A stretch of 64,000 bases of DNA, taken from positions 23,265,231 through 23,329,230 of the forward strand of contig OX031060.1 in assembly GCA_943736015.1 (NCBI GenBank). Direction: 5' to 3'. The position numbers were made by a program, and so were the translations under genes. The notes beneath the pieces were generated by a model. It saw nothing but the letters and a program-made list of their open reading frames with translations, searched no databases and was not told the DNA's origin. The DNA comes from Tridacna crocea (lineage: Eukaryota > Mollusca > Bivalvia > Cardiida > Cardiidae). Below are positions 584 to 60,625 of the stretch, one piece after another (within the stretch, counting starts at the first letter, position 1; each line of letters starts with the position of its first letter).

Positions 584-3500
584 CTATAATCAAAGACATG
601 AAATGTTAATTCTGACTTGCTGATTTTCTGCACTGAGAGGTTCAAACTTTATTTACTCATTACCAAAGACAACATTTTAGGTTTGTCGAAATTGATGAAT
701 TTGCAGATGACTAAATAAAAGTGACTGAAAATTTGAAATTAGTTTTGTGAAGCGTAGAAAACATTGTGGGCAAAGGAGAAAATGCTGATTACCAGCATTT
801 TCTCCTTTTCCCACAATGTTTTCTATAGACATCTTTCTCAGGGGCGTCAAAAGTAGGAATTGTGTGGTAAAGGGTTAAGTAATATCGAAGAACTATCAAA
901 GAAATGAATTTTTCATTCGGACAGGCTGATTTTCTCCAAAGAGAGGGTCATACTTTTATAAAGTACAAGCAGGAGCACCACATCCAGCTGTCAGTGCTGG
1001 GCTGCAGATGCTTGATTTTAAACTTTATCAAGCCACAAAATGTTAATCTTGTCTAAACTGAAAGCATTTGCAGACAACAATTTCATTGTGGTTCAAATGG
1101 TGCAATCTTGCTTTGACAGGGTAGAAAACATTATGGAAAAAGGAGAAAATGCTGGTAACCAGCATTTTCTCCTTTTCCCACAATGTTTTCTAAAGGCTCT
1201 TTTCTCAGGGTCATTAAAAGTCAGGAATGTTTGGTAAAAGAGTTAACAACTTGTCCAAGTTTAAAGAAAATATATTTAGTAATAGCAGATATATTACACT
1301 GTATCAAAGTTGTAGCATGACAACAACACAGATGACAACAGCAATGTCACCGGGGCTATCACAACAAGAGCTATCACTCAACGTGATTATACCCCACACC
1401 AGCTCCTTGTCACAAAAACAGGTCTTTGTTACAGAATAGGTTTGTAATAAAGTAAGAGCTGAAAAAAGTTCAAGGGGAGATAATTCTGTAACAAATCCCA
1501 ACAGGGTCATGCAAATTGCACATGTTCAACTTCATATGTAAAGGAACCCTGTGTGTAAATTTGAATTCAGTACGTGAAAAACTGTGGGAGTGTTGCTCCA
1601 AACAAATTTGTGTCTAAGGACAGACAGGTAGACAGCCATGGGGGGTATAATAATTTGTTGTGTTCTTTGAAATCCTCAGAGCTAAATATCTCAAGAAAAG
1701 ACAGGACAGTTGAGGGAGAGACAACCAGACAGATAACAGTTAAAACTACATCCATTACACATATGAAGCCTTATTCTATTTTATGACTTTCAAACTGTCA
1801 AATCTGAAAGTATTCCAGTTTTCATATATTATCACTAAATCTTGTCGTAACTTTTGTTACAAGTCTTTACTAGATGACATCATTTCAGACCTGACAAATT
1901 TAAAAGCATTTGCAGACAACAAATTAAATTTGGCTCTAACAATAACTGCTTATCACTGAAAGGAAAGCAAACATTGTGGAAAAGGAACGCTTGCTAGAAA
2001 AAAATAAGGTAAGCTCGAGTCTTTTTAACTCTTCACCAAAGGACAAAACCTATGACTGGTCCAAACTGAAAGCATTTGCAGACAACAAAATAAATGGAAC
2101 TAAAAAACTGAAACTTGATGCTGGAAGAGTAGAAAACATTGTGGGATAAGGAGATGATGCTGGTTACCAGCATTGTCTCCTTTTCCCACAGTATTTTCAG
2201 AAGGCTTCTTCTTCTAGGTCGTAAAAGTAAGGGATTGCCTGGTAAAGGGTTAAAATTCATAATTTTAAATCAGCTTAAATTGAAAGAAGTTGCAGCTGAC
2301 AATAAATACCTGAACCAAGTTATTGACCATTCTGTAAACGCGAGTTTGGCATGCTCCCTCCCTCTCCCCCTTTGTAACACCATATTTCGGTTGTCAAGCC
2401 TGACAAGCTAACCAGAAATGTGTCAGACTTTTTTGTTTACGTAACGCCCAATGCTGCATTTTCATTGGCTGATAAAACATTGGTAGACATGTCAATCAAA
2501 ATCGGCAGACAGGTCAATTCCAGATTTAATGACCCAGAAGCTTTCATACAACACAGTGGTGAATAAAAGAAAATGCTGATATCCAGCCCATCAGTTTTTC
2601 CTTTTCCTACAATGTTATCTACGCTTTTAAAGACAAATCCCTCTTTTTGAGGCACACATGTATACAGCAATAAGTCAATGGCAATATTTGCTTTCAATTT
2701 TGATTGGTCCAAATTTTTTTTGTGTGGTAAAGACTTAATCCTTTACCCCGACTTTTTATGACCCTGCAAAAGAAGCCCTCTGAAAACATTGTAGAAAAAG
2801 GAGAAAATGCTTGTAATCAGCATTTTCTTCTTTTCCCTCAATGTTTTCTTCCCTCCCCAAAACAAGTTTCAGATTTTCAGTCACTTTTATTTTGTTGTCT
2901 GCAACTGCTTTCAGTTTAGGCCAGTCTAAAATTTTGTCGTTTGGTTAACTCTTTACCAAACGATCCCTGGGTTTTACGACCCTGAAATATAAGCCACTTC
3001 ACTTTTAACGACCCTGGGAAAAAAGCTTTTGGAAAACATTGTCAGAAAAGGAGAAAATGCTGGTAACCAGCATTTTCTCCTTTTCCCACAATGTTTTCTA
3101 TCCTCCTGCAAACAAATTTAAATTTTTGAGTTACGCTTATTTTTTCGTCTGCAAGTGCTTTCAATTTGGACAATTCTAAAATTTTGTTGTTTGGTAAAGA
3201 GTTAAATAAAGTTAAAATGATTGGATTTGTCCCTTGAAGGATAGAAAATATTTGGAAAAACAGAGAAAATGCTTTAACCCTTTACCACACAACAAAATTT
3301 TAGACCAGTCCGAATCCAAAACATTTGCAGATGACAGTTTCAATGTGGCTCATTTCAAATGGTTTTTCTTTGATAGGGTAGAAAACATTGTGGGAAAAGG
3401 AGAAAATGCTGTTTACTAGCATTTTCTCCTTTTCTGACAATGTTTTCCAAAAGCTTTTTTCCCAGGGTCGTTAAAAGCTGGCATTGCATGGTAAAGAGTA

Positions 3501-6500
3501 CAGACTTCTTTGTCAGGGCAACTAAAACATGAAATTGTTTGGAAAGGGTTTAAGTTTTGCTTACCAAAGTTTGCCTGTCTAGCTTCACAATATTCTAGAT
3601 ACTGTTGCGGATCTAAACATCTGGACCTCAACTCTGCTCTCTGTAAACACATGAAGTTTCCACTGATCAATCCCCTGTTTTAATTTCCCTGAGCAAATAA
3701 CCTTGTGGGAAAAGGAGAAAATGCTAGCAACCAGCCTCTCTCTTTTTCCAATGAAGTTTTTCTACATTTTCAGAGACAATAACAATCATTATAGCTCTAT
3801 TTATAACATTGTCTGTAAATGCTTTAAATCTAGACAAGCTTAAAATTTGTTTTGATAAAGAAACAAGAGAGCCATGATGGCCCTGAAGTTGCTCACCTGA
3901 CCACACAGGATTCATTATAAACCTCTTTCGAGATATTATAACAAACATTCATACATGCTTTCATAATTATTTGATTGAAAATTAGGCCTCTAGCTACTAT
4001 GCAAGTCTTTTTTAGACTAATCCATGTCAACAAGTTAAACATTTTGACAAGTTTATTCAATATTGATCTTAAATTGTGGCCTCTAGCGTATACACAAAGT
4101 TTTTCTAAAATTTCACCTAGTGACTTACATCTTCATCTAACCTGACCCATTTTCAAACTGATGCAAGATGTCATCAAGACAACCACCCTGACTACATTTC
4201 ATGAGTATTGGACAAAAACTGTGTGGCCTCTAGAGCATACACAAAGTTTTTTAAAGATTTAATCAACTGACCTAGTTATTGACCTGACATTATCAATTTT
4301 CACAATCCTCAACAATAACATCAAGACAAACATTCTGACTAATTGTACAGAGTAATACACTGAAAATGTGACCTCTAGAGTGTACACAAAGTTTTTCAAA
4401 GATTTGACCTAGTCTCCTAGTTTTTGATCCAGCATGACCCATTTTCAAACTCATCTGAGATATTATTAAGGTAAACATTCTGACCAAGTTTCAAGAGTAT
4501 TGGACTGAAAATGTGGCCTCTAGAGCATATACAAGGCTTTTCTAAGATCTGACCTACTTATTGACTCAACATGACCCATTTTCTACCTTGTACAAGATAC
4601 CATCAAGACAAATATTCTGACTAACTTTACAGAGTATTTCAAAGAAAATGTGGCCTCTAGAATGTACACAAGGTTTTTCACAGATCTGACCCTGTGACCT
4701 AGTTTTTGACCCAACATTGACCCATTTTCACACTTACCTGAAATACTATCAATTTAAACATTCTGACTAACTTTAAAGTATATTGGACTCAAAATGTGGC
4801 CTCTAGATGATACACAAGGTTTTTCTAACATTTGACCTAGTGACCTAGTTATTGACCATCCATAATCAATTCCAGAACTCATGCAAGATACCATCAAGAC
4901 AAACATTCTGACCAACTTTCAAGAATATTGGACTGGAAATGTGGCTTCTGCAGCATACTCAAGGCTTTTCTAAGATATGACCTGGTGACCTAGTTTTTGA
5001 CCAGCCATAACCCATTACAGAACTCATCCCATATACCATCAAGAAAAACATTCAGGCCAAGTTTCAAGACCAGCCATAATCAATTCCAGAACTCATCCAA
5101 TATACCACGAAGACAAACATTCTGACCAACTTTCAAGAATATTGGACTGAAAATGTGGCCTCTAAAGAATACACAAGGTTTTTTCCTAAGATTTGACCTA
5201 GTGACCTAGTTTTTGACCAGACACGACTTATTTTCAAAGACATCTGAGATATTGTCAAGGCAAACACTCTGACCAACTTTCAAGAATATTGTACTCAAAA
5301 TGTGGCCTCTTAAGAGTATACAAGGTTTTTCCAAGGTACACAATGTTTTTCTGATATTTGTCTGGTGACCTAGTCACTGACCTGACATGACCCATATTTT
5401 CGAACTCATCCAAGATATCATCAAGACAAACATGTGACTAAATTTCAAAAGCATTGGACTGAAAATGTGGCCTCTTAGAGTTTGCACATGGTTTTTCTAA
5501 GATTTGACCTAGTTACCTAGTTTTTGACCCATCCTGACCCATTTTCAAACTTGTCCGAGGTATTATCAAGACAAACGTTTTGACCAAGTTTCAAGAGTGT
5601 TGGAATGAAAATGTCCTCTAGAACATACACAAGGTAAAAGTTAATGCCGGATGATGCATGACAGAACCCGGACACAGCACGATCACAAAAGCTCATAAGC
5701 TCATCATGAGCACTCTGGGCTCAGGTGAGCTAAAAAAGATACATACACACTCTACAAGAACTTGTTCATGAACTCAACTGTTTAAAGTGCTTTTTTCTTT
5801 TAGCATTTCTTTGCCAATGCTCTTTTCAAGTGTCAGCTGCTATTCTCCCCCCCCCCCAATCAACAGAACATTATTCAGTTGTAAAAGAGGCATGGATTCT
5901 GCAGCAATGACTATCATCATCCCTAAAAAGAGATTGGTTATGCAGGTTGACAAACATAATCATTAACTTGCAAAGAACAAGTCACTGACCTTTTGTGGCC
6001 AGTGTAGATCAAGATCAGACTACACAAGACATGCAGGCTGATCTTGGATCTACACAGCCCCATAAGGAGATATTTTTCTCCAAAAATTAATTTTGAAATG
6101 ACATTATCTCGGTCTTTACCATTGGCTTGAAAGTTTTATTTGATTTATCAATTCTTTACCAAACGACAAATTTATAGACTATACCAAAATAAAAGCATTT
6201 GCAGATGACAAAATAAATGTGACTGAGGAATCGAAATTTGATATGGGAAGGGTATAAAACATTGTGGGAAAAGGAGAAAATGCTGGTTACCAGCATTTTC
6301 TCCTTTTCCCACAATGTTTTCCAAAGGCTTCTACCTGAAGGTCGGCAAAAGTTGTCATTGTGTAGGAAAGGGTTAAGCATGTGAAGGGCTAAGATCTGTG
6401 GAGTAAAGGTCAGGTGTTCCAGCACTTGGCCGTACAGCCCTTGGAACTTACCAGTAATCGTTCATATTTCACTTCATCCTCAGAATCGGATTCCTCTTCA

Positions 6501-9500
6501 AACAATTCCAATAATTCACCTGAAATGGCAGATTTGTATGTTATAAATGTCTTCTCCAAGGTATATTGGAAATAGTGAGAAATTGCTTGAAGCAAGAGAT
6601 CACATCTTTAATCCTTTCAACGCCATTAACAGAAACATGGCTTTTGCTGGCAGAACAGATAAAGATCAGACTGTATTCAGTACAACCAATACGATGAAAT
6701 ATCAGAGTTTCAGCTGATTTTATTTTCAGTTATCAAAGAGTTAGCTCTTTACCAAACAACAAAATCTTAGACTGGTCCATATTGAAAGCATTTGCAGACA
6801 ACAAATTATTGAATTCAGCCCAACAGATGATATCAATCTTTTATCTCTAAACCAAACAACAAAATTTTAGGTTTGTCCAAATTGAAAGTATTTGCAGACA
6901 ACAAAATAAAAGTGACTGAAAATTGGAAATTTGCTTTGTGAATGGTAGAAAAAATTGTGGGAAAAGGAGAAAATGCTGGTTACCAGCATTTTCTCCTTTT
7001 CTCACTATGTTTTCTAAAGGCTTCTTTCTCAGGGGCGTCAAAAGTAGGGATTGTGTGGTAATGGGTTAACTCTATATGAAACAACAAAATTACAGACTGG
7101 TCAAAATTGAAAGCATTTGCAGACAACAACATAAATATAACTGAAAAATTGAAATTTGTTTCTTTAGGAAGGTAAAAAACATGTGGTAATAGGAGAAAAT
7201 GCCCGTTACCAGTATTTACTCCTTTTCCCACTATGTTGTCAAAAAAAATTTTTCCTTTGGGTTCTTCCTTGTAAGTTGGGACTGTGTGGTAAAAAGTGGA
7301 CCCTTTACCACACAATGACGACTTTTGACAACCCTGAGGTAGAAGACTTTTGAAAAAATTGAGGGTAGAGGACTTTTGAAAAAATTAAGAGAAAAGGAGA
7401 AAATGCTGGTTACCAGCATTTTCTCCTTTTCCCACAATGTTTTCTACCCTTCGAAAATCAAAATTCAATTTTTGAGTCACAATTATTTTGACGTCTGCGA
7501 TTGCTTTGAATTTGGTCTAGTCCAAAATTTCGCCATAGGGTAATGAGTTAACATATTAGTGCCTGAAAGAATCAACCATGATGTATTCATCTGCTGTCTA
7601 ATTGTTTGTTTAATGCCATTTTTAACATTATTTTAGTCATATCCCAGCAGTCGTCGACAAGCTCTGCTCTTTGAGTATCCGTATTTACAACCTATACAAG
7701 CCACTGGCTGCATTTCCACATAAATTATGATAAACTCTTTACCACACAATCCAAACTTTTAAAGACCCTGAGAGAGATGGCTTTTGAAAACATGGAAAAA
7801 AGAACAAATGCTGTTAACCTGCATTTTCTCCTTTTCTTGCTAATTTTTCCACTCAAGTTTCAGCATTTAACTCTTTACCAAATGGTAAAATTCTGGACGC
7901 AGACAAACTGAAAGCATTTGCAGATATCAAAATAGATGTAGTTCAAATGATGATTTTTGCATTTGATAGGTTTGAAAGCATTGTGGGAAAAGGAGAAAAT
8001 GCTGATTACCACCATTTTCTCCTTTTTCCACAACGTTTTCAAAAGGCGTCTTCCTAAGGATCATTAAAACTTGGGATTGTCTGGCAAAGAGTTAAGCCAC
8101 ACTGAAATTGTCGTCTGCTAATGCTTTGAATTTGGATGGGTCTAAAATTTTGTTGTGTGGTAAAGAGTTAACAGGGTCCTGCATGGCTCAGTGGTAAAGT
8201 GTAGGACTCGTGATCTGGAGCAGCCTGGTTCGGTCTGCACTGGATCCGCTGGATTTTTCATGGGAGTGTTGCTCAGTGAGAAACCTCAGAACCCCAGCTC
8301 TGTACTGGTGAAATACATGAATGTGTGAGCTGTCGCTGTGATATGACTGAAAGAATGTTGTAAGTGGTGTAAAACAATATTCCTTTGATCAATACTGCAT
8401 AGATATTTTCATAACAATGTTAAGGAGTACGGAATTAATAAAATCTTGTCCCATTTACTATCATCTGCCCAATAAAAGAGCTTAGCCAGTCTAGGATACA
8501 GACTCACAATTTGTAGGTTTGAAGCCATGCATAACTGTCATTATAATTATCTTGTTGACTTTGAAAAGACTGTAGGAAAAGGAGAAAATACTGGTTACCA
8601 GCATCTTCTCCTTTTTCCACAAAGATTTCAAAAACCTTTTTTTCTTTCTTACATTCAAAATCGATTTTCTCAAAGGACTCTGGAAGCCTTTGTAGATGAA
8701 GGAGAAAATACTGGTTACCAGCATTTTTCCCACAATGGTTTCAAACCTTTTTTTTCCAAGTTGCTTACCAACAATCACTCCTTTATCCCAATAGGTTCCA
8801 AAAGTCCTTTGCCTAAGAGTTCTAAAACCACAGGACTGTTTTGTAAAAGCTTAACTCTTTACCAAACAACAAAATTTTAGACTAGTCCAAATTGGAAGCA
8901 CAGTGTTGCTTCTAGGATTTTCCAAAATGGGGCACTGGGGCCCCCTCACTTCCAAAAAAGGGGCTCCTTACTCATGAAAGGGGGCCTCAAATTTACATGG
9001 TTCTTTTTGTGTCTTAAACTCAGACTGCACTGCATACCCCTTTCCGTATTTTCAAGCCACGGCCATTTGGTCAGCCAGGAATCTTGAAACAGTTTTGTCT
9101 TTTTCTGTTGGCTTGGTCAATCATTATTTTGACCTTGTGTCGAATTTTCCATTTCATTGTCAGATTCATTAATCACACCAACACTACCATTATTTCCTTC
9201 AGAAACTGTCGGTGGTTCCTCGGCACTACAGTCAGTTGCCTTACCGAAGTTAAAATCAAATAATGTCCACTTCATTTTATTTTTTGAAATTTAGAAATTC
9301 AGCAATCTTGAACACGATCAATGACGCATGCGGTCAAGGTTATCGAATCATGATATGAAGACGGTGATTGGCTAAAAATGAAGCTAAATTAACTTTCAAC
9401 CAACAGCTGTCCTCGATACACAATAATGGCGGATAGCTTCATAGTATGGTGGCACATCGATCTTTTTTTTAGACTGGCGCACCCAACAGCGAAAATTGCG

Positions 9501-12500
9501 GGAAGTTATGTAATCGTGCGGCATGAGGGGCGCACACCAGTGATTTCTTTTGCGCCAATCCTTTAATTTTCGCGGGATTCCCGCAATCCCTCGCCCTAGA
9601 AGCAACACTGGAGCATTTGCGGACAACAAAATAGATGTGACCCAAAAATTGAAATTTGATTTGGGAAAGGTAGAAAACATTATGGGAAAAGGAGAAAATG
9701 CTGGTTACCAGCATTTTTTCCATTTCCCACAACGTTTTCAACCATTTTCTTTATCAGTGTCGTTAAACGTTGGGATTGTGTGGTAAAGAGTTAAAATGTT
9801 TCTTTACCGGTTTGATCAATTGATGAAAGGAATTCATAGCACATCTTCTTTCTTTTCTTCATTGGCTGAGCTTTCACCACTTCCACAGCTATTCAAAATA
9901 GAAGAGATTATCCTGTAATTTTCTTTTTTATGGTAAGCCATAATTTGACAAAATTGCTTTATTAGTAGTACTTCTATGAGTGCTCATCTTCTTCAACCCT
10001 TTACCAAACAATCCCGGGTTTTTATGACCCTAAGATAGAAGCCCTTGAAAACATTGTGGGGAAAGGACAAATTACTGGAAACCAACATTTTCTTCATTTC
10101 TCATAATGTTTTCTACTCTACTGAAAACAAACAAGTTTTGATTTATGTTTATTTTGTCGTCTGCAAATACATTCAGTTTGGACCAGTTTAAAATTTTGTT
10201 GTTTTGTTAAGAGTTAACCCTTTGCTTGTCTAGGCCCAGTTTCATCACAGAATCCCTTAACCCTTTACCATACAATCCCAAACACCCCTGTGAAAGAAGC
10301 CTTTTGAAAACATTGTGGGAAAAGGAGAAAATGCTGGTTACCATTATTTTCTCCTTTTCCCACAATGTTTTCTCCCCTTCCTAAAACAAATTTCAATTCT
10401 TTGGTCACATTCATTTTGTCATCTGCAAATGCTTTCAATTTGGACCAGTCTAAAATTTCGTTGTTAGGTAGTTAAATGACTCATCTACCAACTTAGGTCG
10501 AGTTTGCTGTTTGAGTCTTATTTCACTGAAATGAAAAGACTTAACCCATTACCACACAATCCCTACTTTTGACGCCCCTGAGAAAGAATCCTTTTGAAAA
10601 CACTGTGGGAAAAGGAGAAAATGCTGGTAACCAGCATTTTCTCCTTTTCCCACAGTGTTTTCTACCCTTCCCAGAACAAGTTTTATTTTTCAGTCACTTT
10701 TATTTTGTCGTCTGCAAATGTTTTCAATTTGGACCAGTCCAAAATTTTCTCGTGTGGTAATGAGTTAAGCAACATTCTAAAAACATAAGGTGACACTTTT
10801 CAGACCCAAATCAGGACTTAAGTCTGATCATTTTGCTCAGTTAAGTCAGAAACTTTGTGTCAACTCACGATTTGAGAATGCTTTTTAACTCTTTACCAAA
10901 GGACAAATTTTCAGACTGGACCAAATTCAAAGCATCTGCAGACAACAAATTATATCCTGTTCATATGATGATTTCTGACTTTTATAAGGTAGAAAATATT
11001 GTGGGAAAAGGAGAAAATGCAGCCGGTTACCAGCATTTTCTCCTTTTCCCACCATGTTTTCGATAATCTTCTCTCTCAGGGTCTTTAAAAGTCGGGATTG
11101 TGTCATAAAGAACTATGTCAATTTATGTTAGTGAAAATGGTTACTAGCATTTTCTCCTTTTCCCACTATGTTTTCTGTAACCTTCTCTCTCAGGGTCTTT
11201 AAAAGTCAGGATTGTGTCATAAAGAACTATGTCAGTTTATGTTAGTGAAATGCGCCTCAAATAATGATTTTTGCAAAATTCACGACATAAGTTTTTTTTT
11301 GCAAAACTAGGCCCTTGGTTTTCAACACTGCTTTTAAAGTCATTTAACCCATTACCAAATAATCCCTACTTTTGACGCCCCTAAGAAAGAAGCCTTTTGA
11401 AAACACTATGGGAAAAGGAGAAAACGCTGGTACCAGCATTTTCTCCTTTTCCCACGGTGTTTTCTACCCTTCCCAGAACAAATTTCTGTTTTTTAGTCAC
11501 CTTTATTTTGTCGTCTGCAAATGCTTTCAATTTGCACCAGTCTAAAATTTTCTCGTGTGGTAGAGAGCTAAGTAACAGTGTTATGGCTTGTACACCTATT
11601 TATGCTTTCCTTTACTTAGCATTACGTTTTTCTTTGGTCAACATCCTCTTTGTTTGATGTTGAATTCTGTTTTCATCATCTTTCCTTAATTCATAAGCAG
11701 CTAAGCCTTTATTAACTGGCATTTTCTCTTTTTCCAACAATGTTTTCAGAAGGCTTCTTTCTCAGGGCCATGAAAACCAGGGATTGCTTGGTAAAGGGTT
11801 AAATCCAATGTCTACGTACCATGGTCTAGGTCCTCTTCTTCTGTGTTCGTGCGAGCAACAGCTGCCTTCAGATCTTTTAGTTCTAGAAACTTCAGAAGTC
11901 TCTTTAACTTCACCTGTGAAAGTAAAATGTCTAAGAAATATTTTGTATAAGTCTTTGCTAAACAAAATAATTTCACAGTCATTCAAATTGAAAGCATTTG
12001 TAAACTGTAAAGTAAACATCGCAAAAAGAAAAGGATTTTTCTTTAACCCATTACCACACAGTCGCGACTTTTAACGACCCAGAGAAAGAAGCCTTTTGAA
12101 AACATTGTGGGAAAAGGAGAAAATGCTGGTAACCAGCATTTTCTCCTTTTTCCACAATGTTTTCTAGCCTTCTGAAATCAAATTTCAATTTTCTATTCAC
12201 ATTTATTTTGTCGTCTGCAAATTCTTTCGATTTGGACAAGACCAAAATTTTGTCGTTTGGTAAAGAGTTAAAAGGGTAGAACACATTGTGGGAAAAGCAG
12301 AAAATGCTGGTTTCTCTTCTCTTTCCACAATGTTTCAAAGTTTACATTCCCAGAACAGTTACACATGAAAATGTTCCGTAATTTTTTTCTTTTTGATAAC
12401 ATCACGAAAATAAAATACAAACAGGTAAAATGTGCCTTAGCTCTTTACCACACATTTTTTAACGACCCCTGAGGAAGAAGCCTTTCGAAAGCATTAAGGT

Positions 12501-15500
12501 AAAAGGAGAAAATGCTGGCATCCAGCATTTTCTCCTTTTCCCTTAATGTTTCCTTACCAATCAAAGACAAGTAGCATTATTCGGGACACATTTGAATTGT
12601 CGTCTGCAAATGCTTTCAATTTGGACAAGTTAACATTTTTATCATGTTATAAAGAGTTAAAACAACAGATCAACCTCTGAGGGGGTGGGGGGAACAATGC
12701 TTTTCCTCATCCTAAAATGTTTTTGGGTGTTCCCTAACTTCCCTATGTTTTCGGAATATTTTCACAAGTCCTCTTACTTGTAGTCATAAAAGCAAAGATC
12801 ATTTTACTATAAGACTTTAATAAATGAATCAGGCCATGTGAAAAGGAGGCTTCATGTTTCTGCAAAATGTCAGCCTGCAAAGTCAACACATAGACTGAAA
12901 CTTTCTGGGTTTTGTAAATTTTCTGTCTGTCAAAGGACCAGTTTCCTCATGATAAGGAGGGTTTTAGGACTATATGGATTTCATGGATCTTTATTTATGA
13001 GTTGACTTTCATAATATGAAGTATCACAGAGATGCATTAACCCTTTACCAAACAATCCCTACTTTTGATGACCCTGAGAAAGAAGCCTTTAGAAAACACT
13101 GTGGGAAAAGGAGAAAATGCTGGTAACCAGCATTTTCTCCTTTTCCCACAATGTATTCAACCCTATCAAGGGATACATTGTGGGAAAAGCAGAAAATGCT
13201 GGTTTCCACCATTGTCTCCTTTTCCAACAATGTTTTCTATAGGCTCCTTGCCCAAGATCGTTAAGAAGTCAGCAATGTAGGCTAAAGGGTTTAACATCAC
13301 CCAAGTGAGACAGGGGTCCAGATAAGAGTAAGAGATACTATTCTAAATCCATTACTTCTCTTCCAAACATTATGTTGTTGGTACTCATTAGAATCATCTC
13401 GATGAGACGATTCTTATGAGTACCCACAACATAGGGTCTAATGAAGAATAATGAAAATTTTTAATTTCGAAATAAAAATCACTCCCTAAATCTGGAGCAT
13501 TGATGTGATATGAAAATTTGCAATGGGAAGAAAAAGGGTGGTTGTGTGATAAATACCTTGTCTTTCCTCATCAGAAACAATATGTCCTCTGCCCCAATCA
13601 GTTTAGCTCCTCTCATTGAAGCAATATCTGATGCTTTATATAACTGTAAGTTTAGACAAAAAGAATGAAGATATAGAAGGTATTTGTTTTTTTCGGTGAA
13701 AGATCGAAATTTATTTCATCTCGTGGATGCCATCGGTAATATTTTCACTCGTGGCTGAGCCACTCATGAAAATATTACCGATGGTATCCAGTCAATGAAA
13801 TAACTTTCAATCTTTCACTGAAAAAAACACAACTATTCCATTTATTTGATGCTTTTAACCTTTTCTGGGAGGAGCTTATCAAAATCCAGTACAATTCTTT
13901 TCCGTTATTTCCTGTGGCTTACCCCTTCCACACAGCAAAGCATGACAATATTATGTCAAGCGCGAGAAATGAAAGGTAAATGACGTCATATTTCCATCTG
14001 GTTGTGAAGCACACACAATTAACCTAGGCAACAAGAACACGAAAATTTTCACTGGTGGTACCAGTGTAAGATCGAAAAATATTTTCAGAGCTATTTCTCG
14101 ATATCCTACCGGAAAGCATGAAATAAATAATAATACTACTGATATACTTTCTCTCATCATTCATCAAACACAGAAAGAGGGAATTTCTTATCCTTGTCAG
14201 AGTTCCAGATAAGAGGGAGTGATGGTATTCTAAAGTCATTATTTCTCAATGAAACCCTATGTTGTGGGTATTCATTAAAATCATCTCAATGAGATGATTC
14301 TAATGTCATTAAGATGATTCTAATGAGTACCCATAACATAGGGTTAAGTGAAGAATAATTAATACCGGTATTTACAATTTTGAAATCGCTCCCTCTATCT
14401 TAAGCTCTGCATGTACATAAAAAATTACACCAAAAATCAGAAAAAGATCAATTGACCCATCACCACACAATCCCAACTTTCAACGACCTTGAGAAAGAAG
14501 CCTTTTGGGAAAACTTGTGGGGTGGCTCGTTACGAGCAATTTCTCCTTTTCCCACAGTGTTTTTAAAGACTTTAACTGCAGTCACGTAAAAACCAGGGCT
14601 TGTTTGGGAAAGGGCTAACTATTATAATTATCTTTACTAGAAAAAAACGAAATTTCAGGCTGGTGCAAATTGAAAGTATTAGTTTTGAAAGCATTTACAG
14701 ATCATGAAAAATTAAATGCTGCACAAGTCATGGAATTTGGCTTTGATAGGGCAGAAAACCTCTTGGGAAAAGGAGAAGATGTTGGTAACCAGCATTTTCT
14801 CCTGTTCCCCCAATGCTTTAAAAGCCATTTCCATAAGGGTTATTAAAACTCTGATTTTTTTTTTTTTTTTTTGGGGGGGGGGGGGGGGGGAGATAAAGGG
14901 TTGATTTGCAATTAGAGATTTCAAGAAGCAATTCCCTATTTTGTACTTTTTGGTGGATGAGAGGAACTTTCACCATATATTTTAATTAACAATTTCCTTA
15001 CAAAGCCCTCGAATTAACGAAATTCAGAAAGCAAAAAAAGAAAGTAAATGCTGCACAGAGGACGGGATTTTTCTTTGAAAAGCTAGAACACAGTAGGCTA
15101 CCAGAATTTGTTTTTACTTTTACCCACTTGTTTTTCTTATCTGAATTTGCACTATTAGCTTTGCCGAGACATTCTGTCTTAACTCATTACCAATCGACAA
15201 ATTTTTAGGTTTGTACGAATCGAAAGCATTTGCAGGCGACAAAATAAGTGACTGAAAATTTCCAAAATGAAAGCACTTGCAGACGACAAAATGAATGTTC
15301 TGTAACTCAAAATTAGAAATTCGTTTTGTGAAGGATAGAAAACATTGTTGGAAAAGTAGAATATGCTGGTTACCAGCATTTTCTCCTTTTCCCACAATGT
15401 TTTCTAAAGGCCTCTTTCTCAGGGTCGTCAAAAGTAGGGATTGAGTGGTATTGGGTTAACCCATTACCACACAATCCCTACTTTCGACGCCCCTGAGAAA

Positions 15501-18500
15501 GAAGACTTTTGAAAACACTGTGGGAAAAGGAGAAAATGCTGGTAACCAGCATTTTCTCCTTTTCACATAGTGTTTTCTACCCTTCCCATAACAAATTTCT
15601 ATTTTTCAGTCGCTTTTATTTTGTCGTCTGCAAATGCTTTCAATTTGGACCAGTCTAAAATTTTCTCGTGTGGTAAAGAGTTAAGTCAACCTCAAAAACT
15701 ATCTTTTGGGTGATTTTCATGTCTAAATTTATCACCATTTTGTACACTAGAATGTTTTAACTCTACCAACGACAAAATTTTAGACTGGTCCAAAATAAAA
15801 GCACTTGCGGACGACAAAATAAATGTACCATAACTCAAAATTTGAAATTTGTTTCCAGCAGAGTAGAAGGCACTGTGGGAAAAGGAGAAAATGCTGGTTA
15901 TCTTAATTTTCTCCTTTTCCCACAATGTTTTCAAAAGACTTTTTTCTCAGTGTCGTCAAAAGTAGGGATTGAGTGGTAATTGGTTAATGGCTTACATCCT
16001 CCTTACCAATGTGATCATCTGATGTTGTGTAATCTCTTCCACTAGAACTGCAGACTCTTGTAAAGGTCGTCTACAATCACCCAGACCATGCCTAGAATAG
16101 AATTATGAGCTTTATGACAAATTATACATTCCACCTGAAAGGTATTGGTTTTCTTTCCTCATTATCCCCTGAGGAGATCTTCTAATAAGAACAGTTGAAT
16201 GTGCTAGGTTTGACCTATTTTTAGGTACTACTAATAAAAAAAGAATAAATAGATATTAATTTTGTGATAGATGAAAATGCAGACATGTTTATTCTAAGAG
16301 GCCCTGCCTACTTCCTGGTGTGATGGAGAGGGCTTAGATATATAAGCACTTGAAACCTGCCTTGCTGTTGAGCTAGCTTTAACAGCAATGCAGTTTGGTG
16401 TATTTCTCTCTGTGATAGTTAAACAATATGCATTAGGTCAGTGCCTGGATGGGTAACCAAGTCGTTGCACATTACATTTGGTGGCAGCGGTGGGATAATG
16501 ACAACTGCCGGACTGGAGTTGCCTGTCGAGACTTCTCAAAGGGGTGTGTGTGTGTGTGTGTGGGGGGGGGTGTTAATGTCACAGAGAGGAGTTAGATATA
16601 TAAGCACTTGAAACCTGCCTTGCTGGGGGGGGGGGGGGGGGGGGGAAGGGGTTAATGTTACAGAGAGGAGTTAGATATATGGGGGGTGGGGGGGGGGGTA
16701 ATGTCACAGAGAGGAGTTAGATACATGATGATGTATATAAGCACTTGAAACCTGCCTTGCTGTTGAGCTAGCTTTTCCACCGATGCAGTTTTGTGTATTT
16801 CACTCTGTGATAGTTAAGCAATGTGCATTAGGTAGTGCCTGGATAGGTGACCAGGTCGTTGCATGTTTCACTGGCAAATTTACCCTGTCCATCTTTTTTT
16901 TTCAAAGATATTTCTTGTTTTATCTTTTAGGGGGATTATGACTTCTGAAAATATTGAGGAAAAACACTACTTCAAACTAGCAATTAATTCATTATCTTTA
17001 GACTACATGGTAAAATTTTCGACTTAAGTCACGTCCAATTTGAATTAACACTTGTAGGCAATAAGCAAAATGGGTCTCATATCACATGACTTGTCATTAA
17101 TGGAATGTGAGAAAACACTGTGGGAAATAGAAAAAAGGATTGTGTTTAATACATCATTAACTTTTGGTTTTGTGAAGATCTAAAAATATTTGAGCAGTGA
17201 TATGATTATCTGAGAATGCTGTGATCAGGGCCCGTATTCACCAACCATTCAGGAGAATATTCTTCTTATTCTCCAAGGTTTTCTAAATTTGTAAGTAACA
17301 CAACTTCTGATTGGCTAAACCTGTTGGTTTAGCCAATCAGAAGTTGTGTTACTAACGAATGTAGAAAATACGGGAGAATAAGACAAAGAACATTCTTAAG
17401 AATGGTTGGTGAATATGAGCCCTGGTATGAATCAGTGTTTCTCTGTTAGAATGCCTGAATTTCTTTCGGTTTTTTTTTGCTCCTTCCATAATTTTTCTGC
17501 TAAATCAGAGGAACGACTCAGAACTTACCTTACGACTGGACGGACCAGTATGAGAAAAGGACTTGGCCTATCCTTGCCTAAGGGCATTAATCCTTGCAAC
17601 CAGCTCCTCAAATGGGCCTCTTTTTTTCAGACATGAAGTCTCATCCTCGGATACCCCGTAGTCTCCCTATTTGCTATGCTACATCGACCCCTGGGGCAAT
17701 TAATTGAATTTCCCTCGCTTTACCGCTGGCCGAATGCTGGCTTTTCATTGGTTCCATCATCATTTTGTGATGGGCGAGTGGACTGTACGCTATGACGTTT
17801 CGTATCGATTTTCGGCAGCTGATTCAAAGTTTTATTAGTCAATTGTCCCAGGGGTCGATGTAGCGTAGCAAATAGGGAGACCCTGGGGTATCCGAGGATG
17901 TGAAGTCTACTGGCAAGTCAAACTTCAACTTTACACAGATCGAGCCAAACGTTTTAAAACAGAAATGATGGACCCAGATAGTTATTACATTCAAACAGCC
18001 CTTTTGGTCAGATTATTTAACTCATTACCAAATGAGAAAATTTTAGACAAGTCCAAATTGAAAACATTTGCACATAACAAAATAAAGGTGACTGAAAAAT
18101 AGAAAATTGGTTTGGGAAGGGTATAAAACATTGTGGGAAAAGGAGAAAATGCTGGTTACCAGCATTTTCTCCTTTCCTCAAAATGTTCAAAAGGCTTCAT
18201 TCTGAGGGTCGTTCAAATTCCAAATTGTGTGGTAAAGAGTTTCCACAATGTTTCTACCCTTCACAAAACAAAATTCAAATTTTCCGTCACTTTTATTCTG
18301 TTGCCTGCAATTATGCTTTCGATTTGGACAAGTCTAAAATACTGTTGTTTGGTAATAAGTTAAGACAGTGTTGGTCAAAGATCATGCAGATAGGATGTAC
18401 TTCATCTCAATCCTAATCAACAATTTAAACCATAACAACTTGACCTTCTCCCAATCAACAAATTTTAGACATCTAAATTCAAAACATTGCAAATAATGAT

Positions 18501-24736: not shown

Positions 24737-24945
24737 TTAACTCTTTGCCACACAATCCCGACTTTTAACGACCTTGAGAAAGAACCATTTGAAAATATTG
24801 TGGTATCCAGCATTTTCTCTTTTTACCACAATGTTTTGTACCCTTCCGAAACCAAATTTCAATTTTTGGGTTATGTTTATTTTGTTGTCTGCAACTGCTT
24901 TCAATTTGGACATGTCTAAAATTTTCTCATCTGGTAAAGTGTTAA
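24737..24945 (-). mobile_element. TTAA-foldback MITE, first arm shortened
   Basis: ATATTGTGGTATCCAGCATT shows loss of the GAAAAGGAGAAAATG part of one arm. TTAA at both ends; the right one is shared. Confidence 0.86.
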
Positions 24946-25188
24946 TTCTTTACCAAGCTATCTAATGTTTCAATGAGGCTGAAGAAATGGGTGTCTGAAA
25001 AAAAACAGGTAATGAAAGAAATGCTCAAGTAACCAAGAATGTCTCCTTTCCAACAATGTTTTCAACCTGTTCAGAATTTCCATGAATAAAGTTTAGTCAC
25101 ATTAAAAAAATTCAATTTGTTGTTTGCATAATGCTTTCATTATTGGACTATCAGTACTCAAAAATTCTGCAGCCTGGTAAAGAGTTAA
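24942..25188 (-). mobile_element. TTAA-foldback MITE, old copy
   Basis: TTAA at both ends but the interior is strongly diverged; CAACAATGTTTTCAACCTGT and TTGTTGTTTGCATAATGC are recognisable. Confidence 0.7.
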
Positions 25189-35657: not shown

Positions 35658-35888
35658 TTAACTTATTACCAAATGATACTATGCTAGGCTTGTCCAAATC
35701 GAAAGCATTTGCAGACAACAAACTAAGTGACGGAAATTTTGAAATTTGTTTTGCAAAGGGTAGAAAGCATTGTGGGAAAAAGAGAAAATGCTGGTTACCA
35801 GCATTTTCTCCTTTTCCCACAATGCTTTCTAAAGGCGCCTCAGACTCTCAGAGTTGTCAAAAGTAGGGATTGAGTGGTAATGGGTTAA
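35658..35888 (+). mobile_element. TTAA-foldback MITE, full length
   Basis: L end first, TTAA at both ends, strong hairpin (AAGCATTGTGGG..CCCACAATGCTT). Confidence 0.9.
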
Positions 35889-35921: not shown

Positions 35922-36158
35922 CTGTATCCTTTACCACTTGATCCCAAGTTTTAACAACCTCAAAAGATAAAGCTAAAGTTGAAACTATTGTGGGAGAGAA
36001 TGCTAGAACCAACATTACATGTATCTCCATTTCTCACAATGTTTTCTATTCCATAAAAGACAGAAATTATCATTTGACTTACATTAAATTCATTTATCAG
36101 TGACAAAAATACTTCCATTTGGTACAGTCATAAATTCTATCATTTGGTAGAACGTTAA
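35922..36158 (-). mobile_element. TTAA-foldback MITE, old copy
   Basis: R end first, diverged; TTTCTCACAATGTTTTCTAT and ATCATTTGGTAGAACGTTAA are clear. Confidence 0.7.
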
Positions 36159-43861: not shown

Positions 43862-44315
43862 TTAACTCTTTTACCACACAATTTAGTGGGCTTTTAACTC
43901 ATTACCAAATGACAATATTTTAAGCTTGTCCAATTCAAAAAAATTTGCAGATGACAAAATAAAAGTGACTCAAAATTTGTGAAGGGTAGAAAACATTGTG
44001 GGAAAAGGAGAAAATGCTGGTTACCAGCATTTTCTCCTTTTCTCACAATGTTTTCTAAAGGCTTCTTTCTCAGGGTCGTCAAAAGAAGGAATTAAGTGGG
44101 AATGAGTTAACGACCCTGAAAGAGAAAGCTTTTGCAAATATTATGCGAAAAGAAGATAATGCTTGACGAAGTTATAAGCATTTTCTTCTTTTCCCATTAA
44201 AGTTATCTACCCTTTTTTAAAACTAATTTCATTTTTTGAATCACAATTGATTTGTTGTCTGCAATTGCTTTAAAATTGTACCATTCTAAAATTTTGTTGT
44301 TTGGTAAAGAGCTAT
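43862..44315 (-). mobile_element. TTAA-foldback MITE, host split by a nested copy
   Basis: R tip 43862-43897, remainder 44107-44315. Rejoined: GGGCTTTTAACGACCCTGAA, as expected for an R end. Confidence 0.86.
43894..44110 (+). mobile_element. TTAA-foldback MITE, nested insertion
   Basis: L end first, TTAA at both ends, opposite to its host; about 14 bp missing from the L interior. Confidence 0.9.
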
Positions 44316-44788: not shown

Positions 44789-45017
44789 TTAACCCATTAC
44801 CACACAATCCCTACTTTTGACGCCCCTGAGAAAGAAGCCTTTTGAAAACACTGTTGGAAAAGGAGAAAATGCTGGTAACCAGCATTTTCTCCTTTTCCAA
44901 CAGTGTTTTCTACCCTTCCCAGAAAAAAATTCTATTTTTCAGTCACCTTTATTTTGTCGTCTGCAATTGCTTTCAATTTGGACCAGTCCAAAATTTTCTC
45001 ATGTGGTAATGAGTTAA
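44789..45017 (-). mobile_element. TTAA-foldback MITE, full length, little diverged
   Basis: R end first, CGCCCC/CTCATG subgroup. The paired change CTGTTGGAAAAGG / CCTTTTCCAACAG keeps the hairpin perfect. Confidence 0.92.
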
Positions 45018-45075: not shown

Positions 45076-45285
45076 TTAAGTCTTTAGCAAACGACAAAAT
45101 TTTAGACTGGTCAAAGGTGAAAGCATTTGCAGACAACAAATTAAAGCAACTTAAAAATTGAAATTTGTTATGGGGAGCATGGAAAACATTGTGGAAAAAG
45201 GAGAAAATGCTGGTTACCAGCATTTTCTCCTTTTTCCACAAGGTTTTCAAAAGGCTTAATGCGGGATTGTTCGGTAAAGAATTAA
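45076..45285 (+). mobile_element. TTAA-foldback MITE, short R end
   Basis: L end first, TTAA at both ends. The R interior lacks TCTCAGGGTCGTTAAAAG-like sequence. Confidence 0.87.
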
Positions 45286-45581: not shown

Positions 45582-45810
45582 TTAACTCATTACCAAACGA
45601 CAAAATTTTAGACTGGTCCAAATTGAAAGCATTTGCAGATGACAAAATAAATGTGGGTCAAAAATTGAGATTTGATTTGGAAAAGGTAGAAAATATTGTG
45701 GGAAAAGGAGAAAATGCTGGTTATCAGCATTTTCTCCTTTTCCCACAGTATTTTCAAAAGTTTTCTTTCTCAGGGTCATCTAAAGCAGGTATTGTGTGGA
45801 AATGGGTTAC
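45582..45810 (+). mobile_element. TTAA-foldback MITE, full length
   Basis: L end first. Right TTAA decayed to TTAC. A Helitron-like element starts at this point. Confidence 0.88.
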
Positions 45811-47606: not shown

Positions 47607-47845
47607 CCCTTAAGGGTTTCCCACACAATCCTGACTTTTAACGACCCTATGAAAAGAAGGCTTTTGAAAACTGTGGGAAAAGGAGAAAATACTGGTAACC
47701 AGCATTTTCTCCTTTCTGAGACAGTTCTAATCATTCCATTGCCATGAAATAAGCCGCTGAAAATACTTTTTATTTGGGAAAGTCTAAAATTTTGCTATGT
47801 TGTAAAGTGGTCATTAAAACAAAGGGTTATATGGTAAAGGGTTAT
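47603..47845 (-). mobile_element. TTAA-foldback MITE, diverged, with an extra end fragment
   Basis: R end first with a small insertion (TTAAGGGTT). The L side is eroded to 47812, followed by GGGTTATATGGTAAAGGG, a piece of an R tip. Confidence 0.7.
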
Positions 47846-47988: not shown

Positions 47989-48218
47989 TTAACTCTTTAC
48001 CACACGATGAAAATGAAACCTTGTCCAAATTGAAAGCATTTGCATATGACAATTCAAACGTGTGTCCGGTAACGGTACATGTCTTTGATAGGTAAGAAAA
48101 CATTGAGGGAAAAGGGGAAAATGCTGGTTACCAGCATTTTCTCCTTTTCCCTTAATGTTTTCAAAAGGCCTCTTTCGCAGGGGTCGTTAAAAATCGGGAT
48201 TGTGTGGTAAAGAGTTAA
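47989..48218 (+). mobile_element. TTAA-foldback MITE, full length
   Basis: L end first, TTAA at both ends; paired arm changes CATTGAGGGAAAAGG / CCTTTTCCCTTAATG. Confidence 0.9.
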
Positions 48219-48470: not shown

Positions 48471-48502
48471 ATTTGGTGTCTGCAAACCCTATGATAGTAT
48501 CA

Positions 48503-49166: not shown

Positions 49167-49395
49167 TTAACTCTTTACCAAACGACAAAATTTTGGACTA
49201 CTCCAAATCAATAGCATTTGCAGACAACAATATAAATGTGAATCAAAAATTGATTTTTGATTTTGTGAGTGTAGAAAATATTGTGGGAAAAGGAGAAAAT
49301 GCTGGTAAACAGCATTTTCTCCTTTTCCCACAATGTTTTCAAAAGGCTTCTATCTCAGGGTTGTTACAAGTCGGGATTGTGTGGTAAAGAGTTAA
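49167..49395 (+). mobile_element. TTAA-foldback MITE, nested, first of a tandem pair
   Basis: L end first, TTAA at both ends, perfect long hairpin. Confidence 0.92.
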
Positions 49396-49620
49396 CCCTT
49401 TACCAAACGACAAAATTTAGACTGGTCCAAATTGAAAGCATTTGCAGACGACAAAATAAACGTGACTTAAAAAAATTAAACATGGGTTAGGAAGGGTAGA
49501 AAACGTTGTGGGAAAAGGAGAAAATGCTGGTTACCAGCATTTTCTCCTTTTCCCACAATGTTTTCAAAAGGCTTCTTTTACAGGGTCGTTAAAAGTCGGG
49601 ATTGTGTGGTAATGGGTTAA
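49392..49620 (+). mobile_element. TTAA-foldback MITE, nested, second of a tandem pair
   Basis: L end first (here TTAACCCTTTACC), sharing TTAA 49392-49395 with the first. Close to the family consensus. Confidence 0.93.
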
Positions 49621-50641: not shown

Positions 50642-50869
50642 TTAACCCTTTACCAAAGGATAAATTTATAGACTGGTCCAAATTGAAAGCGTTTGCAGAC
50701 GATAAAATAAATGTGACTGAAAAGTCAATTTGATTTGAGAAGGGTAGAAAACATAGTGGAAAAAAGTAGAAAATGCTGCTTACCAGCACTTTCTCCTTTT
50801 CCCACAATGTTTTCAAAAGGCTTCGAACACAGGGTCTTTAAAAGTTGTTATTGTGTGGTAAAGGGTTAA
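50642..50869 (+). mobile_element. TTAA-foldback MITE, full length
   Basis: L end first, TTAA at both ends, one arm slightly eroded. Confidence 0.9.
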
Positions 50870-58706: not shown

Positions 58707-58933
58707 TTAAGCCTTTACCTCACAATGCCGACTGTTAAAGACACTGCCGGAGAAAGAAGTTGGAAAACATTGTTGGAAAAGGAGAAGATGCTGGTATCCA
58801 GCATTTTCTCCTTTTCCAACGATGTTTTCTACCGCATGACAAATAGCGTAGTCCGCGTTGCATATAGTTTTTGGTCAGCAAATTCTTTCAACTTGCACAA
58901 ATTAAGAATTTTACAGTATGGTAAAGACTTTAA
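58707..58933 (-). mobile_element. TTAA-foldback MITE, L side diverged
   Basis: R end first, TTAA at both ends, hairpin with paired TTGTTGGAAAAGG / CCTTTTCCAACGA. Confidence 0.82.
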
Positions 58934-60270: not shown

Positions 60271-60392
60271 ACAACAAGGGATTATAATATACAAACATTA
60301 TTTCATACTTTTGAAAATGGAAAAATTTAAAATAAATAGGGGGTGAGGGTTGCAATCAGGCTTGAACCTGCCATTGTAAGAGGGCATGGGCA

Positions 60393-60625
60393 TTAACTCT
60401 TTAAATACCAAATAACAAAAGTTTAGACAGGTCCAAATTGAAAGCACTTGCAGACGACAAAATAAACGTAACTCAGAAATTATGACGTGTTTCCAGTTGG
60501 GTATAAAACATTGTTGGGAAAGGAGAAAATGCTGGTTACCAGAATTTTCTCCTTTTCCCACAATGTTTTCAATAGCTTTCAATCTCAGGATAATTATAAT
60601 TTGGGATTGTGCAGTATTTAGTTAC
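60393..60625 (+). mobile_element. TTAA-foldback MITE, full length
   Basis: L end first with a small insertion (AAATACC). Right tip TTAC. Confidence 0.86.

What the first reader, a model, noticed from the sequence alone, without database searches (positions are those of the whole stretch)
652..60625. About 100 copies of one TTAA-flanked foldback MITE in 64 kb
The same about 228-bp design recurs end to end: different L and R tips, TTAA at both ends, and a long central palindrome. The tips (TTAACCCTTT..) fit piggyBac-type transposons. Density is roughly a quarter of the window, and many copies keep near-perfect hairpins, some with matching changes in both arms, which points to fairly recent activity or to repair between arms.
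Basis: partly seen in the sequence, partly recalled or inferred. Interest (0 to 1): 0.85.

Follow-up and report, generated by a model that had tools for sequence, protein, structure and literature searches.

The report
Extremely abundant hairpin-bearing piggyBac-like MITE
A 229-base non-coding jumping-DNA family with a built-in hairpin fills about a third of this window and, by estimate, about a fifth of the whole one-billion-base genome (roughly a million copies), and the two halves of its hairpin tend to change together, which suggests that the hairpin matters to the element.

Summary
In detail: 112 non-redundant matches to one 229-bp element cover 31.7% of the window. It has 14-bp inverted tips beside TTAA and a central palindrome with ~33-bp arms. 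Six copies sit inside older copies; joining their flanks restores the older copy with one TTAA, so TTAA-targeted transposition is shown directly. Tips start CY, as in piggyBac, not RR, as in Kolobok.

The genome is 1.05 Gb; the perfect 31-nt hairpin core occurs at 191,599 places. With a 200-kb sample this gives an estimated 1.24 million copies and 21% of the genome.

The arms co-vary: 59 matched double changes against 18.6 expected (0/200 nulls; no excess at the four wrong registers tried), and change less than other parts. "Recent activity" is not supported: the closest sampled pair differs by 3.5%. Of 17 transposase loci examined, none shows this element's tips as its own.

Verdict: a piggyBac-type MITE of unusual scale whose internal hairpin is probably under selection, helped by arm-to-arm templating. 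The host ('bivalve') was not tested.

The parts
652..878 (+). MITE copy, both ends (left TTAA decayed to TTTA)
2025..2253 (+). MITE copy, both TTAA
3274..3502 (+). MITE copy, both ends (right TTAA decayed); possibly nested, junction not clean
6148..6376 (+). MITE copy, both ends
6841..7069 (+). MITE copy; shares its right TTAA with the next copy
7066..7300 (+). MITE copy abutting 6841-7069 through one TTAA
7867..8095 (+). MITE copy nested inside an older minus-strand copy (7733-7866 and 8096-8171); empty site restored with one TTAA
9993..10217 (-). MITE copy, both ends
10541..10768 (-). MITE copy of the least diverged subfamily in the window; hairpin without mismatch
10885..11116 (+). MITE copy, both ends
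11344..11571 (-). MITE copy, both ends
12043..12271 (-). MITE copy nested inside an older plus-strand copy (11948-12042 and 12272-12374)
12437..12660 (-). MITE copy, both ends
15456..15684 (-). MITE copy sharing TTAA with inverted neighbour 15261-15459
15757..15987 (+). MITE copy, both ends
18017..18243 (+). MITE copy, both ends
18440..18650 (+). MITE copy, both ends, strongly decayed
19112..19340 (+). MITE copy, both ends
19356..19581 (+). MITE copy, both TTAA; a 19-bp tip remnant lies just before it
19813..20002 (+). MITE copy with both TTAA; right hairpin arm deleted
21212..21439 (-). MITE copy, both TTAA
21584..21820 (+). MITE copy, both TTAA; an inverted copy ends at 22037
23411..23598 (-). 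MITE copy, both ends, decayed
24737..24945 (-). MITE copy sharing TTAA with the next
24942..25188 (-). MITE copy abutting 24737-24945 through one TTAA
25758..25966 (-). MITE copy, both TTAA
27892..28118 (-). MITE copy, both TTAA
28334..28504 (+). left piece of an older MITE copy interrupted by 28505-28734
28505..28734 (+). MITE copy nested inside 28334-28781 at a TTAA that the consensus lacks
28735..28781 (+). right piece of the interrupted older copy
29252..29479 (-). MITE copy, both ends
29523..29750 (+). MITE copy with matched changes k3, k8 and k26 in both arms (subfamily markers)
30330..30564 (+). MITE copy, both ends
30868..31096 (-). MITE copy nested inside an older plus-strand copy (30787-30867 and 31097-31239)
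31900..32132 (-). MITE copy, both TTAA
32344..32562 (+). MITE copy, both TTAA
33366..33593 (-). MITE copy, both ends, left TTAA decayed
35658..35888 (+). MITE copy with a private matched change in both arms (k29 A-T to G-C)
35923..36158 (-). MITE copy, both ends, decayed
43894..44110 (+). MITE copy nested inside an older minus-strand copy (about 43863-43893 and 44111-44314)
44789..45017 (-). MITE copy, hairpin without mismatch, private matched change (k22 G-C to T-A)
45076..45285 (+). MITE copy, both ends, matched change k20
45582..45810 (+). MITE copy with a private matched change (k28 C-G to T-A)
47610..47813 (-). MITE copy, decayed ends; possibly nested, junction not clean
47989..48218 (+). 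MITE copy, both TTAA
48274..48471 (-). MITE copy, decayed ends; possibly nested, junction not clean
49167..49395 (+). MITE copy sharing TTAA head-to-tail with the next
49392..49620 (+). MITE copy abutting 49167-49395 through one TTAA
50174..50402 (-). MITE copy (one TTAA intact, the other decayed) nested inside an older minus-strand copy (49987-50173 and 50403 to about 50426)
50642..50869 (+). MITE copy, both TTAA
54233..54472 (-). MITE copy, left TTAA decayed
58707..58932 (-). MITE copy with a private matched change (k22)
60393..60625 (+). MITE copy, right end decayed

Best explanation
This is a non-autonomous, non-coding DNA transposon (MITE) of the piggyBac type. A piggyBac-like transposase made elsewhere recognises its two ends (a shared 14-bp inverted tip and different subterminal stretches), cuts it out and inserts it at TTAA, which is duplicated. 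Repeated rounds from successive source copies have built, by estimate, about 1.2 million copies and a fifth of a 1.05-Gb genome. The central 33-bp-arm hairpin is not a passive relic: its arms change less than most other parts and often change together, so the source copies that amplified mostly kept a pairing hairpin. I think two things act: selection on source copies for an intact palindrome that helps amplification, and arm-to-arm template switching that copies a mutation from one arm to the other. Shown: TTAA duplication, tips, arm co-variation. Estimated from a sample: copy number and genome share. Inferred: the transposase partner, the advantage of the hairpin, and template switching as the mutational source.
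For: TTAA duplication: six nested copies whose joined flanks restore an older copy with one TTAA; six of ten abutting pairs listed share one intact TTAA. Tips: 13/14-bp inverted repeat, CY start against Kolobok RR (PMC9587614 passages). Transposase source: 118 PF13843 matches in the same genome, 26 of them over at least 340 of 349 positions without stops. Scale: 191,599 perfect 31-nt cores; 20 systematic 10-kb samples of contigs C1-C4 with 220 copies and 19.8% coverage; estimates with intervals. Arm co-variation: in 132 indel-free hairpins, 59 matched doubles against 18.6 +- 3.8 in a null that keeps per-copy and per-site numbers (0/200); 47 against 16.7 without the commonest pair k26 (0/200); no excess at offsets -3, -1, 1, 3, nor at ten offsets and in four pseudo-pair sets of the window data. 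On a tree built from non-arm columns, 11 of 13 same-branch double changes on internal branches are complementary; at eight offsets 0-1. Slower arms: about 12 terminal changes per site against 20-22 in held-out non-arm columns; internal-to-terminal ratio 0.12-0.16 against 0.27-0.32. CpG sites were left out and arms were still slower, except against G/C sites of the tips.
Against: No transposase with the same tips as its own was found in 17 loci; one piggyBac (L029) is flanked by MITE tips, but only because it sits inside a MITE copy. The majority left tip is CTC (39 of 51), not the canonical CC[C/T]T. In the window alone, without pair k26, matched doubles are 12 against 6.8 (13 of 500) and all doubles 18 against 13.8 (44 of 500). 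A neutral simulation at the arms' own low rate already gives an internal-to-terminal ratio of about 0.21, so only part of the drop to 0.13 needs source-level selection. Many matched changes are inherited together: 31 of 47 are seen, at least on one side, in a near relative. The tree is poorly supported (53 of 178 nodes >= 0.8). The planned genome-wide count of single against double changes at one arm pair did not complete.
Confidence: 0.72

Rival explanations
1. The hairpin has no function. It arose once in a founder, and its matched changes come only from DNA-polymerase template switching between the two arms, before or after insertion.
For: Template switching homogenises inverted-repeat arms and flips spacers (PMC8604942 passages; PMC8794818 abstract and passages). 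16 matched double changes are absent on both sides from the five nearest relatives, against about 5 expected with uniform sites. The centre base turns T to A in 12 of 132 indel-free hairpins against a 2.2% baseline, as a 1-nt spacer inversion would.
Against: About 24 excess matched events on terminal branches cannot account for arms with roughly 40% fewer changes than held-out columns. T to C (8 of 132) and T to G (3 of 132) at the centre are raised too, so the centre is partly just more variable. Matched changes are a larger share of changes on internal (source) branches.
Confidence: 0.3
2. The matched changes are only inherited markers of subfamilies, plus chance; nothing couples the arms.
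For: Pair k26 (6 window copies; 11 copies in the combined set) and probably k3 and k8 (5 and 6 copies) are subfamily markers; 31 of 47 matched doubles have at least one side seen in a near relative.
Against: Even as markers, 11 of 13 same-branch doubles on internal branches are complementary; private ones exceed expectation about threefold; offsets and pseudo-pairs show nothing.
Confidence: 0.1
3. It is a Kolobok-type MITE, the other TTAA-duplicating superfamily considered.
For: Kolobok also duplicates TTAA and is frequent in bivalves (PMC9587614 and PMC10294476 passages).
Against: Kolobok elements start RR and end YY (Xenopus ends start AG); this element starts CY and ends RG.
Confidence: 0.04
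4. The hairpin is kept because its RNA is processed to small RNAs, as with the human MITE Made1 and mir-548.
For: Made1 precedent (PMC1784062 abstract). The 71-nt palindrome folds almost perfectly (as DNA).
Against: No Rfam family matched the window at gathering score. Host use of one locus would not preserve pairing across source lineages of so large a family (inference). No expression data.
Confidence: 0.07
5. Copies spread by segmental or tandem duplication rather than transposition.
For: Abutting copies; one 114-bp tandem duplication inside a copy at 11025-11250.
Against: Homology stops at TTAA and the flanks differ; among direct repeats of >=260 nt only a different, 145-bp-period family was found; nested insertions with restored empty sites.
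Confidence: 0.02

Closest known systems
CMITE families of Acropora corals (piggyBac-type MITEs; PMC2872659, parts 1-3 of 4 read)
   Same: TTAA duplication, tips mostly CCCTTT.., non-coding, internal region better conserved than the tips, tandem copies, autonomous piggyBac elements in the same genome.
   Different: CMITEs are about 100 bp and estimated at about 1,600 copies in A. millepora; no hairpin or arm co-variation is reported in the parts read. The internal sequences were not aligned here. Here 229 bp, a 33-bp-arm hairpin, an estimated million copies.
piggyBac families with intact ORFs in the same genome (tips CCCTTTATATAC, CCCTAGTCATGC, CCCATTTATGCC, CCCTTTCAGTGC)
   Same: TTAA, CCC-starting short inverted tips; the first shares CCCTTTA with the MITE right tip.
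   Different: The remaining tip bases differ, and a short-word comparison of the terminal 300 bp with the MITE gave only 9-11-nt matches.
T2-MITE / Kolobok MITEs of Xenopus (PMC6004289 passages)
   Same: TTAA target, short non-coding, long-lived.
   Different: Terminal AGGRR / RR instead of CY.
Made1 (human MITE that gave mir-548; PMC1784062 abstract)
   Same: Short palindromic MITE that folds into a stable hairpin.
   Different: In Made1 the palindrome is made of the terminal repeats (two 37-bp repeats around 6 bp); here it is internal and distinct from the tips.

Membership tests
piggyBac-type MITE | TTAA target-site duplication | tested here: met
   TTAA at 40/51 and 38/51 ends; six nested insertions restore one TTAA
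piggyBac-type MITE | 12-19 bp inverted tips with CC[C/T]T motif (definition as given in PMC2872659) | tested here: inconclusive
   14-bp inverted tips met (13/14); right tip has C at the second base in 33 of 51, left tip has T there in 39 of 51; fourth base T or A
piggyBac-type MITE | Short and without transposase coding | tested here: met
   229-bp consensus; tblastn of 12 piggyBac transposases against the window gave nothing at E<=0.1
piggyBac-type MITE | piggyBac transposases in the same genome | tested here: met
   118 PF13843 matches (some are pieces of one gene; lower bound), 26 nearly full-domain without stops
piggyBac-type MITE | An autonomous element with the same tips | tested here: inconclusive
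   17 loci examined out of 118 matches; 11 of 17 with at least one end read (one doubtful, L040), with other tips; 6 without readable ends
Kolobok-type MITE | Termini 5'-RR ... YY-3' inside TTAA | tested here: not met
   Tips CY..RG; Kolobok definition
Kolobok-type MITE | Kolobok transposase with the same tips | not tested
   No Kolobok transposase search was made
Foldback (FB-like) element | Long terminal inverted repeats forming the foldback (definition recalled) | tested here: not met
   Tips are 14 bp; the palindrome is internal, columns 108-174
Known RNA family / microRNA precursor | Match to a curated RNA family | tested here: not met
   Rfam gathering search of the window: 0 matches
Known RNA family / microRNA precursor | Processed small RNAs | not testable with these tools
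   No expression data

The most novel reading that the evidence does not exclude
The internal palindrome is a cis-acting amplification module: source copies need a base-paired hairpin, either as a dyad bound by a transposase dimer (piggyBac and piggyBat dimers bind palindromic sites with their two cysteine-rich domains, PMC11707139 passages) or as a cruciform or hairpin extruded in replication. With it a DNA transposon reached a copy number like that of Alu (about a million copies and a tenth of the human genome, recalled) and about a fifth of this genome.
Probability: 0.3. Interest if true: 0.8.

Novelty: new variant of a known kind. Interest (0 to 1): 0.58.

Why it matters
A single MITE family that makes up an estimated fifth of a 1-Gb genome is an extreme (judged from recall; no survey of MITE family sizes was made), and the number of copies makes questions testable that small families cannot answer. 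If the internal hairpin is selected in source copies, MITE success depends on more than the ends that a transposase cuts, which the coral CMITE authors had only speculated. The same copies form a natural experiment with hundreds of thousands of palindromes for measuring template switching between arms. One survey of bivalve transposons left its MITEs unclassified (PMC10294476 passages), so a family like this may sit unnamed in existing repeat libraries.

Tried and rejected
Kolobok origin: rejected on terminal bases. Segmental duplication: rejected. Recent burst: closest pairs 5.3% (window, 64 copies) and 3.5% (window plus sample, 181 copies). The first arm test, dealing right arms among copies, did not control for copies of different age; replaced by a null that keeps per-copy and per-site numbers. 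Swapping arms with nearest relatives raised pairing to 0.875 from 0.846; this went against the reading, but the nearest relative tends to be a less decayed copy, so I set it aside as biased. In the window alone the arm signal is modest without pair k26; it became strong only with the 200-kb sample. Copies with insertions or deletions in the hairpin were dropped before the counts: 49 of 112 window copies and 132 of 332 copies in all were used. The low internal-to-terminal ratio of arms was checked against a simulation, which explains part of it. A 10-bp direct repeat in the left half of the consensus (starting at columns 16 and 58) looked like a transposase site, but 78 of 2000 shuffles hold some 10-mer repeat; left as weak. 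Exact-pattern scans of the viral and prokaryote collections gave nothing. The 492-aa transposase family lies in a repeated unit of at least 4 kb that carries MITEs; no tips were found in 8.2 kb.

Full report
Observation. I built a profile from clear copies and searched the window with it. After removing overlaps there are 112 matches covering 20,279 bp, 31.7% of the window; 77 of 112 span at least 180 of the 229 model columns and 51 of 112 have both ends. The parts list holds these 51 and two pieces of one interrupted copy; the other matches are. The consensus is 229 bp: a 14-bp tip, a left stretch of about 90 bp, a palindrome with 33-bp arms around one base (columns 108-174), a right stretch of about 40 bp and the other tip. 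The two 14-bp tips are inverted repeats with 13 of 14 bases the same; beyond them the ends differ. The tip pattern has 80 matches with at most one mismatch, against 0.15 expected in shuffled sequence. The palindrome as single-stranded DNA folds at -39.1 kcal/mol against -5.9 +- 1.9 for shuffles.

How it moves. TTAA is intact at 40 of 51 left ends and 38 of 51 right ends, and the 12 bases outside are not conserved. The best proof is nesting. For six copies (7867-8095, 12043-12271, 28505-28734, 30868-31096, 43894-44110, 50174-50402), taking out the copy and one TTAA rejoins an older copy that reads on through the junction. In five of these six the TTAA is not in the consensus at that place and must have arisen by mutation in the older copy before the insertion; in the sixth (43894-44110) it is a TTAA of the consensus. 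One of the six (50174-50402) has a decayed TTAA at one end. Four further candidates are less good: at 3274-3502, 47610-47813 and 48274-48471 the junction has no intact TTAA, and 47989-48218 has only a weak match. Six of ten abutting pairs listed share a single intact TTAA; 95 of the 531 TTAA sites of the window lie at element ends, so this needs no special preference.

Which superfamily. Both piggyBac and Kolobok duplicate TTAA. Kolobok termini are RR and YY (PMC9587614, passages; Xenopus tips, PMC6004289 passages). This element starts CY. Its right tip is CCC in the majority (second base C in 33 of 51), canonical for piggyBac; its left tip is mostly CTC (39 of 51), which is not. The genome holds 118 matches to the piggyBac transposase domain PF13843, 26 of them nearly full-domain without stops (some matches are pieces of one gene). 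I fetched 17 loci. At least one end could be read in 11 of 17: CCCTTTATATAC (L029, L035, L036), CCCTAGTCATGC and a near variant (L031, L038, L039, L044), CCCATTTATGCC (L033), CCCTTTCAGTGC (L037, L041) and a doubtful CCCTCTAGA (L040). None of these is the MITE's tip; in six (L030, L032, L034, L042, L043, L045) no pair of tips was found. MITE tips do lie near some transposases, but as ends of MITE copies: in L029 the piggyBac element, which another locus repeats end to end at 99.9% identity, sits inside a MITE, so MITE tips flank it. The best shared stretch with an own end is TTAACCCTTTA. So the partner is unexamined, dead, or one of these families acting across a weak match. A tblastn with 12 transposases found no relic in the window (E<=0.1) or in the 200-kb sample (E<=0.001). 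Kolobok transposases were not searched.

Scale. The genome record is 1,048,827,098 bp. The perfect 31-nt hairpin core occurs at 191,599 places, with zero for the reversed control. I fetched 20 systematic 10-kb stretches of contigs C1-C4: 220 non-redundant copies, 140 of at least 180 columns, 19.8% coverage, from 1.4% to 47% per stretch. These stretches hold 34 perfect cores, or 0.17 per kb, against 0.183 per kb genome-wide, so the sample looks representative. The ratio estimate is 1.24 million copies (bootstrap 95% 1.00-1.63 million), 0.79 million of at least 180 columns, and 21% of the genome (17-28%); the plain extrapolation is 1.15 million (0.79-1.53 million). These are estimates from 200 kb.

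Age. Window copies lie 6.6-32% from the consensus, median 13.4%, and the closest pair differs by 5.3% (64 copies). With the sample, 181 copies of at least 195 columns have a closest pair at 3.5% and a median nearest distance of 14%. This speaks for a long history rather than a recent burst, though with about a million copies the youngest have probably not been sampled.

The hairpin co-evolves. I took copies whose 67-nt hairpin has no insertion or deletion: 49 of 112 in the window, 132 of 332 with the sample. I counted pairs where both bases differ from consensus and still match each other, against a null that shuffles changes while keeping the number per copy and per site. Window alone: 17 against 8.1 (0 of 500), but without the subfamily pair k26 12 against 6.8 (13 of 500). 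Combined: 59 against 18.6 +- 3.8 (0 of 200), without k26 47 against 16.7 +- 3.8 (0 of 200), and in copies with few changes 16 against 3.8 (0 of 200). At offsets of -3, -1, 1 and 3 there is no excess; ten offsets and four sets of pseudo-pairs in the window data show none either. On a tree made only from columns outside the arms, 13 double changes fall on internal branches and 11 are complementary; at eight wrong registers 0 or 1 are. On terminal branches it is 29 of 54 against 0-9 of 25-34. Of 47 matched doubles in 116 copies, 16 are absent on both sides from the five nearest relatives, against about 5 expected with uniform sites; 31 have at least one side seen in a relative.

The hairpin is also slow. 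With trees from half of the non-arm columns, arms show about 12 terminal and 1.4-1.8 internal changes per site; held-out non-arm columns show 20-22 and 5.3-6.6; the ratio is 0.12-0.16 against 0.27-0.32. CpG sites do not explain this: with them left out (window copies), A/T sites of the arms are slower than elsewhere, and G/C sites slower than elsewhere except the tips. A simulation at the arms' terminal rate gives a ratio near 0.21, so extra restraint in source lineages is present but modest, and tree support is weak.

Mechanism. Template switching between the arms of a palindrome can copy a mutation from one arm to the other and flip the spacer (PMC8604942 passages; PMC8794818 abstract and passages). 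The centre base fits in part: T to A in 12 of 132 against 2.2% in the arms, but T to C (8) and T to G (3) are raised too. Templating alone cannot explain the overall slowness, since about 24 excess matched events on terminal branches stand against several hundred missing changes (my arithmetic). I therefore favour selection on source copies for a working palindrome, with templating as one source of matched changes. What the palindrome does is inferred: piggyBac and piggyBat transposase dimers bind palindromic sites through their cysteine-rich domains (PMC11707139 passages), which is one candidate.

Known relatives. The nearest published case seen is the coral CMITE group, also piggyBac-type with an internal region better conserved than its tips, about 100 bp and some 1,600 copies in one species (PMC2872659, parts 1-3 of 4). 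Literature searches for piggyBac MITEs of bivalves, for hairpin MITEs and for the arm and tip sequences listed no paper that I recognised as describing this family; I judged by listings and did not open most papers. In one search (20 of 88 papers listed) none of those listed held either 23-nt arm string; a paper printing the arm on one strand would rank first, but one printing it on the other strand could be among the 68 not listed, and only open-licence papers are held.

Limits. The genome-wide arm-pair count was requested many times and not answered.

Noticed in passing
window 13482-13715 (-): ORF with a stretch matching a solved SPT3 homologue at E 8e-6 and Pfam TFIID-18kDa below its cut-off: perhaps an exon of the host gene, so many copies may be intronic.
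   Followed up: partly
window 4071-5501, 37306-38246, 42569-43001: A second repeat family with tandem units mostly of 144-166 bp. Possibly a tandem-repeat-bearing Helitron-like element (recalled resemblance only); a paper search for its words gave one unrelated paper.
   Followed up: partly
window 56195-57052: Another tandem array, period 156 bp, 5.5 units.
   Followed up: no
window 63300-63599 (-) and 13973-14209 (+): Two ORFs share a peptide like GGTSVR.K.IF.AISRYPTGKHEI; the first matches Pfam Transposase_29 weakly (E 0.022, below cut-off): perhaps a further decayed transposon family.
   Followed up: no
L029 829-3816: A 2,766-bp piggyBac element (tips CCCTTTATATAC, 624-aa ORF) sits inside a copy of the MITE; a second copy (L036) is 99.9% identical, so this piggyBac family looks recently active while the MITE looks older.
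   Followed up: partly
L030 and L042: A 492-aa and a 462-aa piggyBac transposase ORF lie in a unit of at least 4 kb, 97.8% identical between contigs C5 and C18 and carrying MITEs inside, with no tips found: perhaps a large composite or duplicated unit.
   Followed up: partly
window 15305-15610 and 21601-22024: Large palindromes (153-nt and 176-nt arms) at places where two inverted MITE copies lie side by side.
   Followed up: yes
window 55251-55751: Low-complexity stretch with 15-30-bp repeats, proline- and glycine-rich in translation.
   Followed up: no
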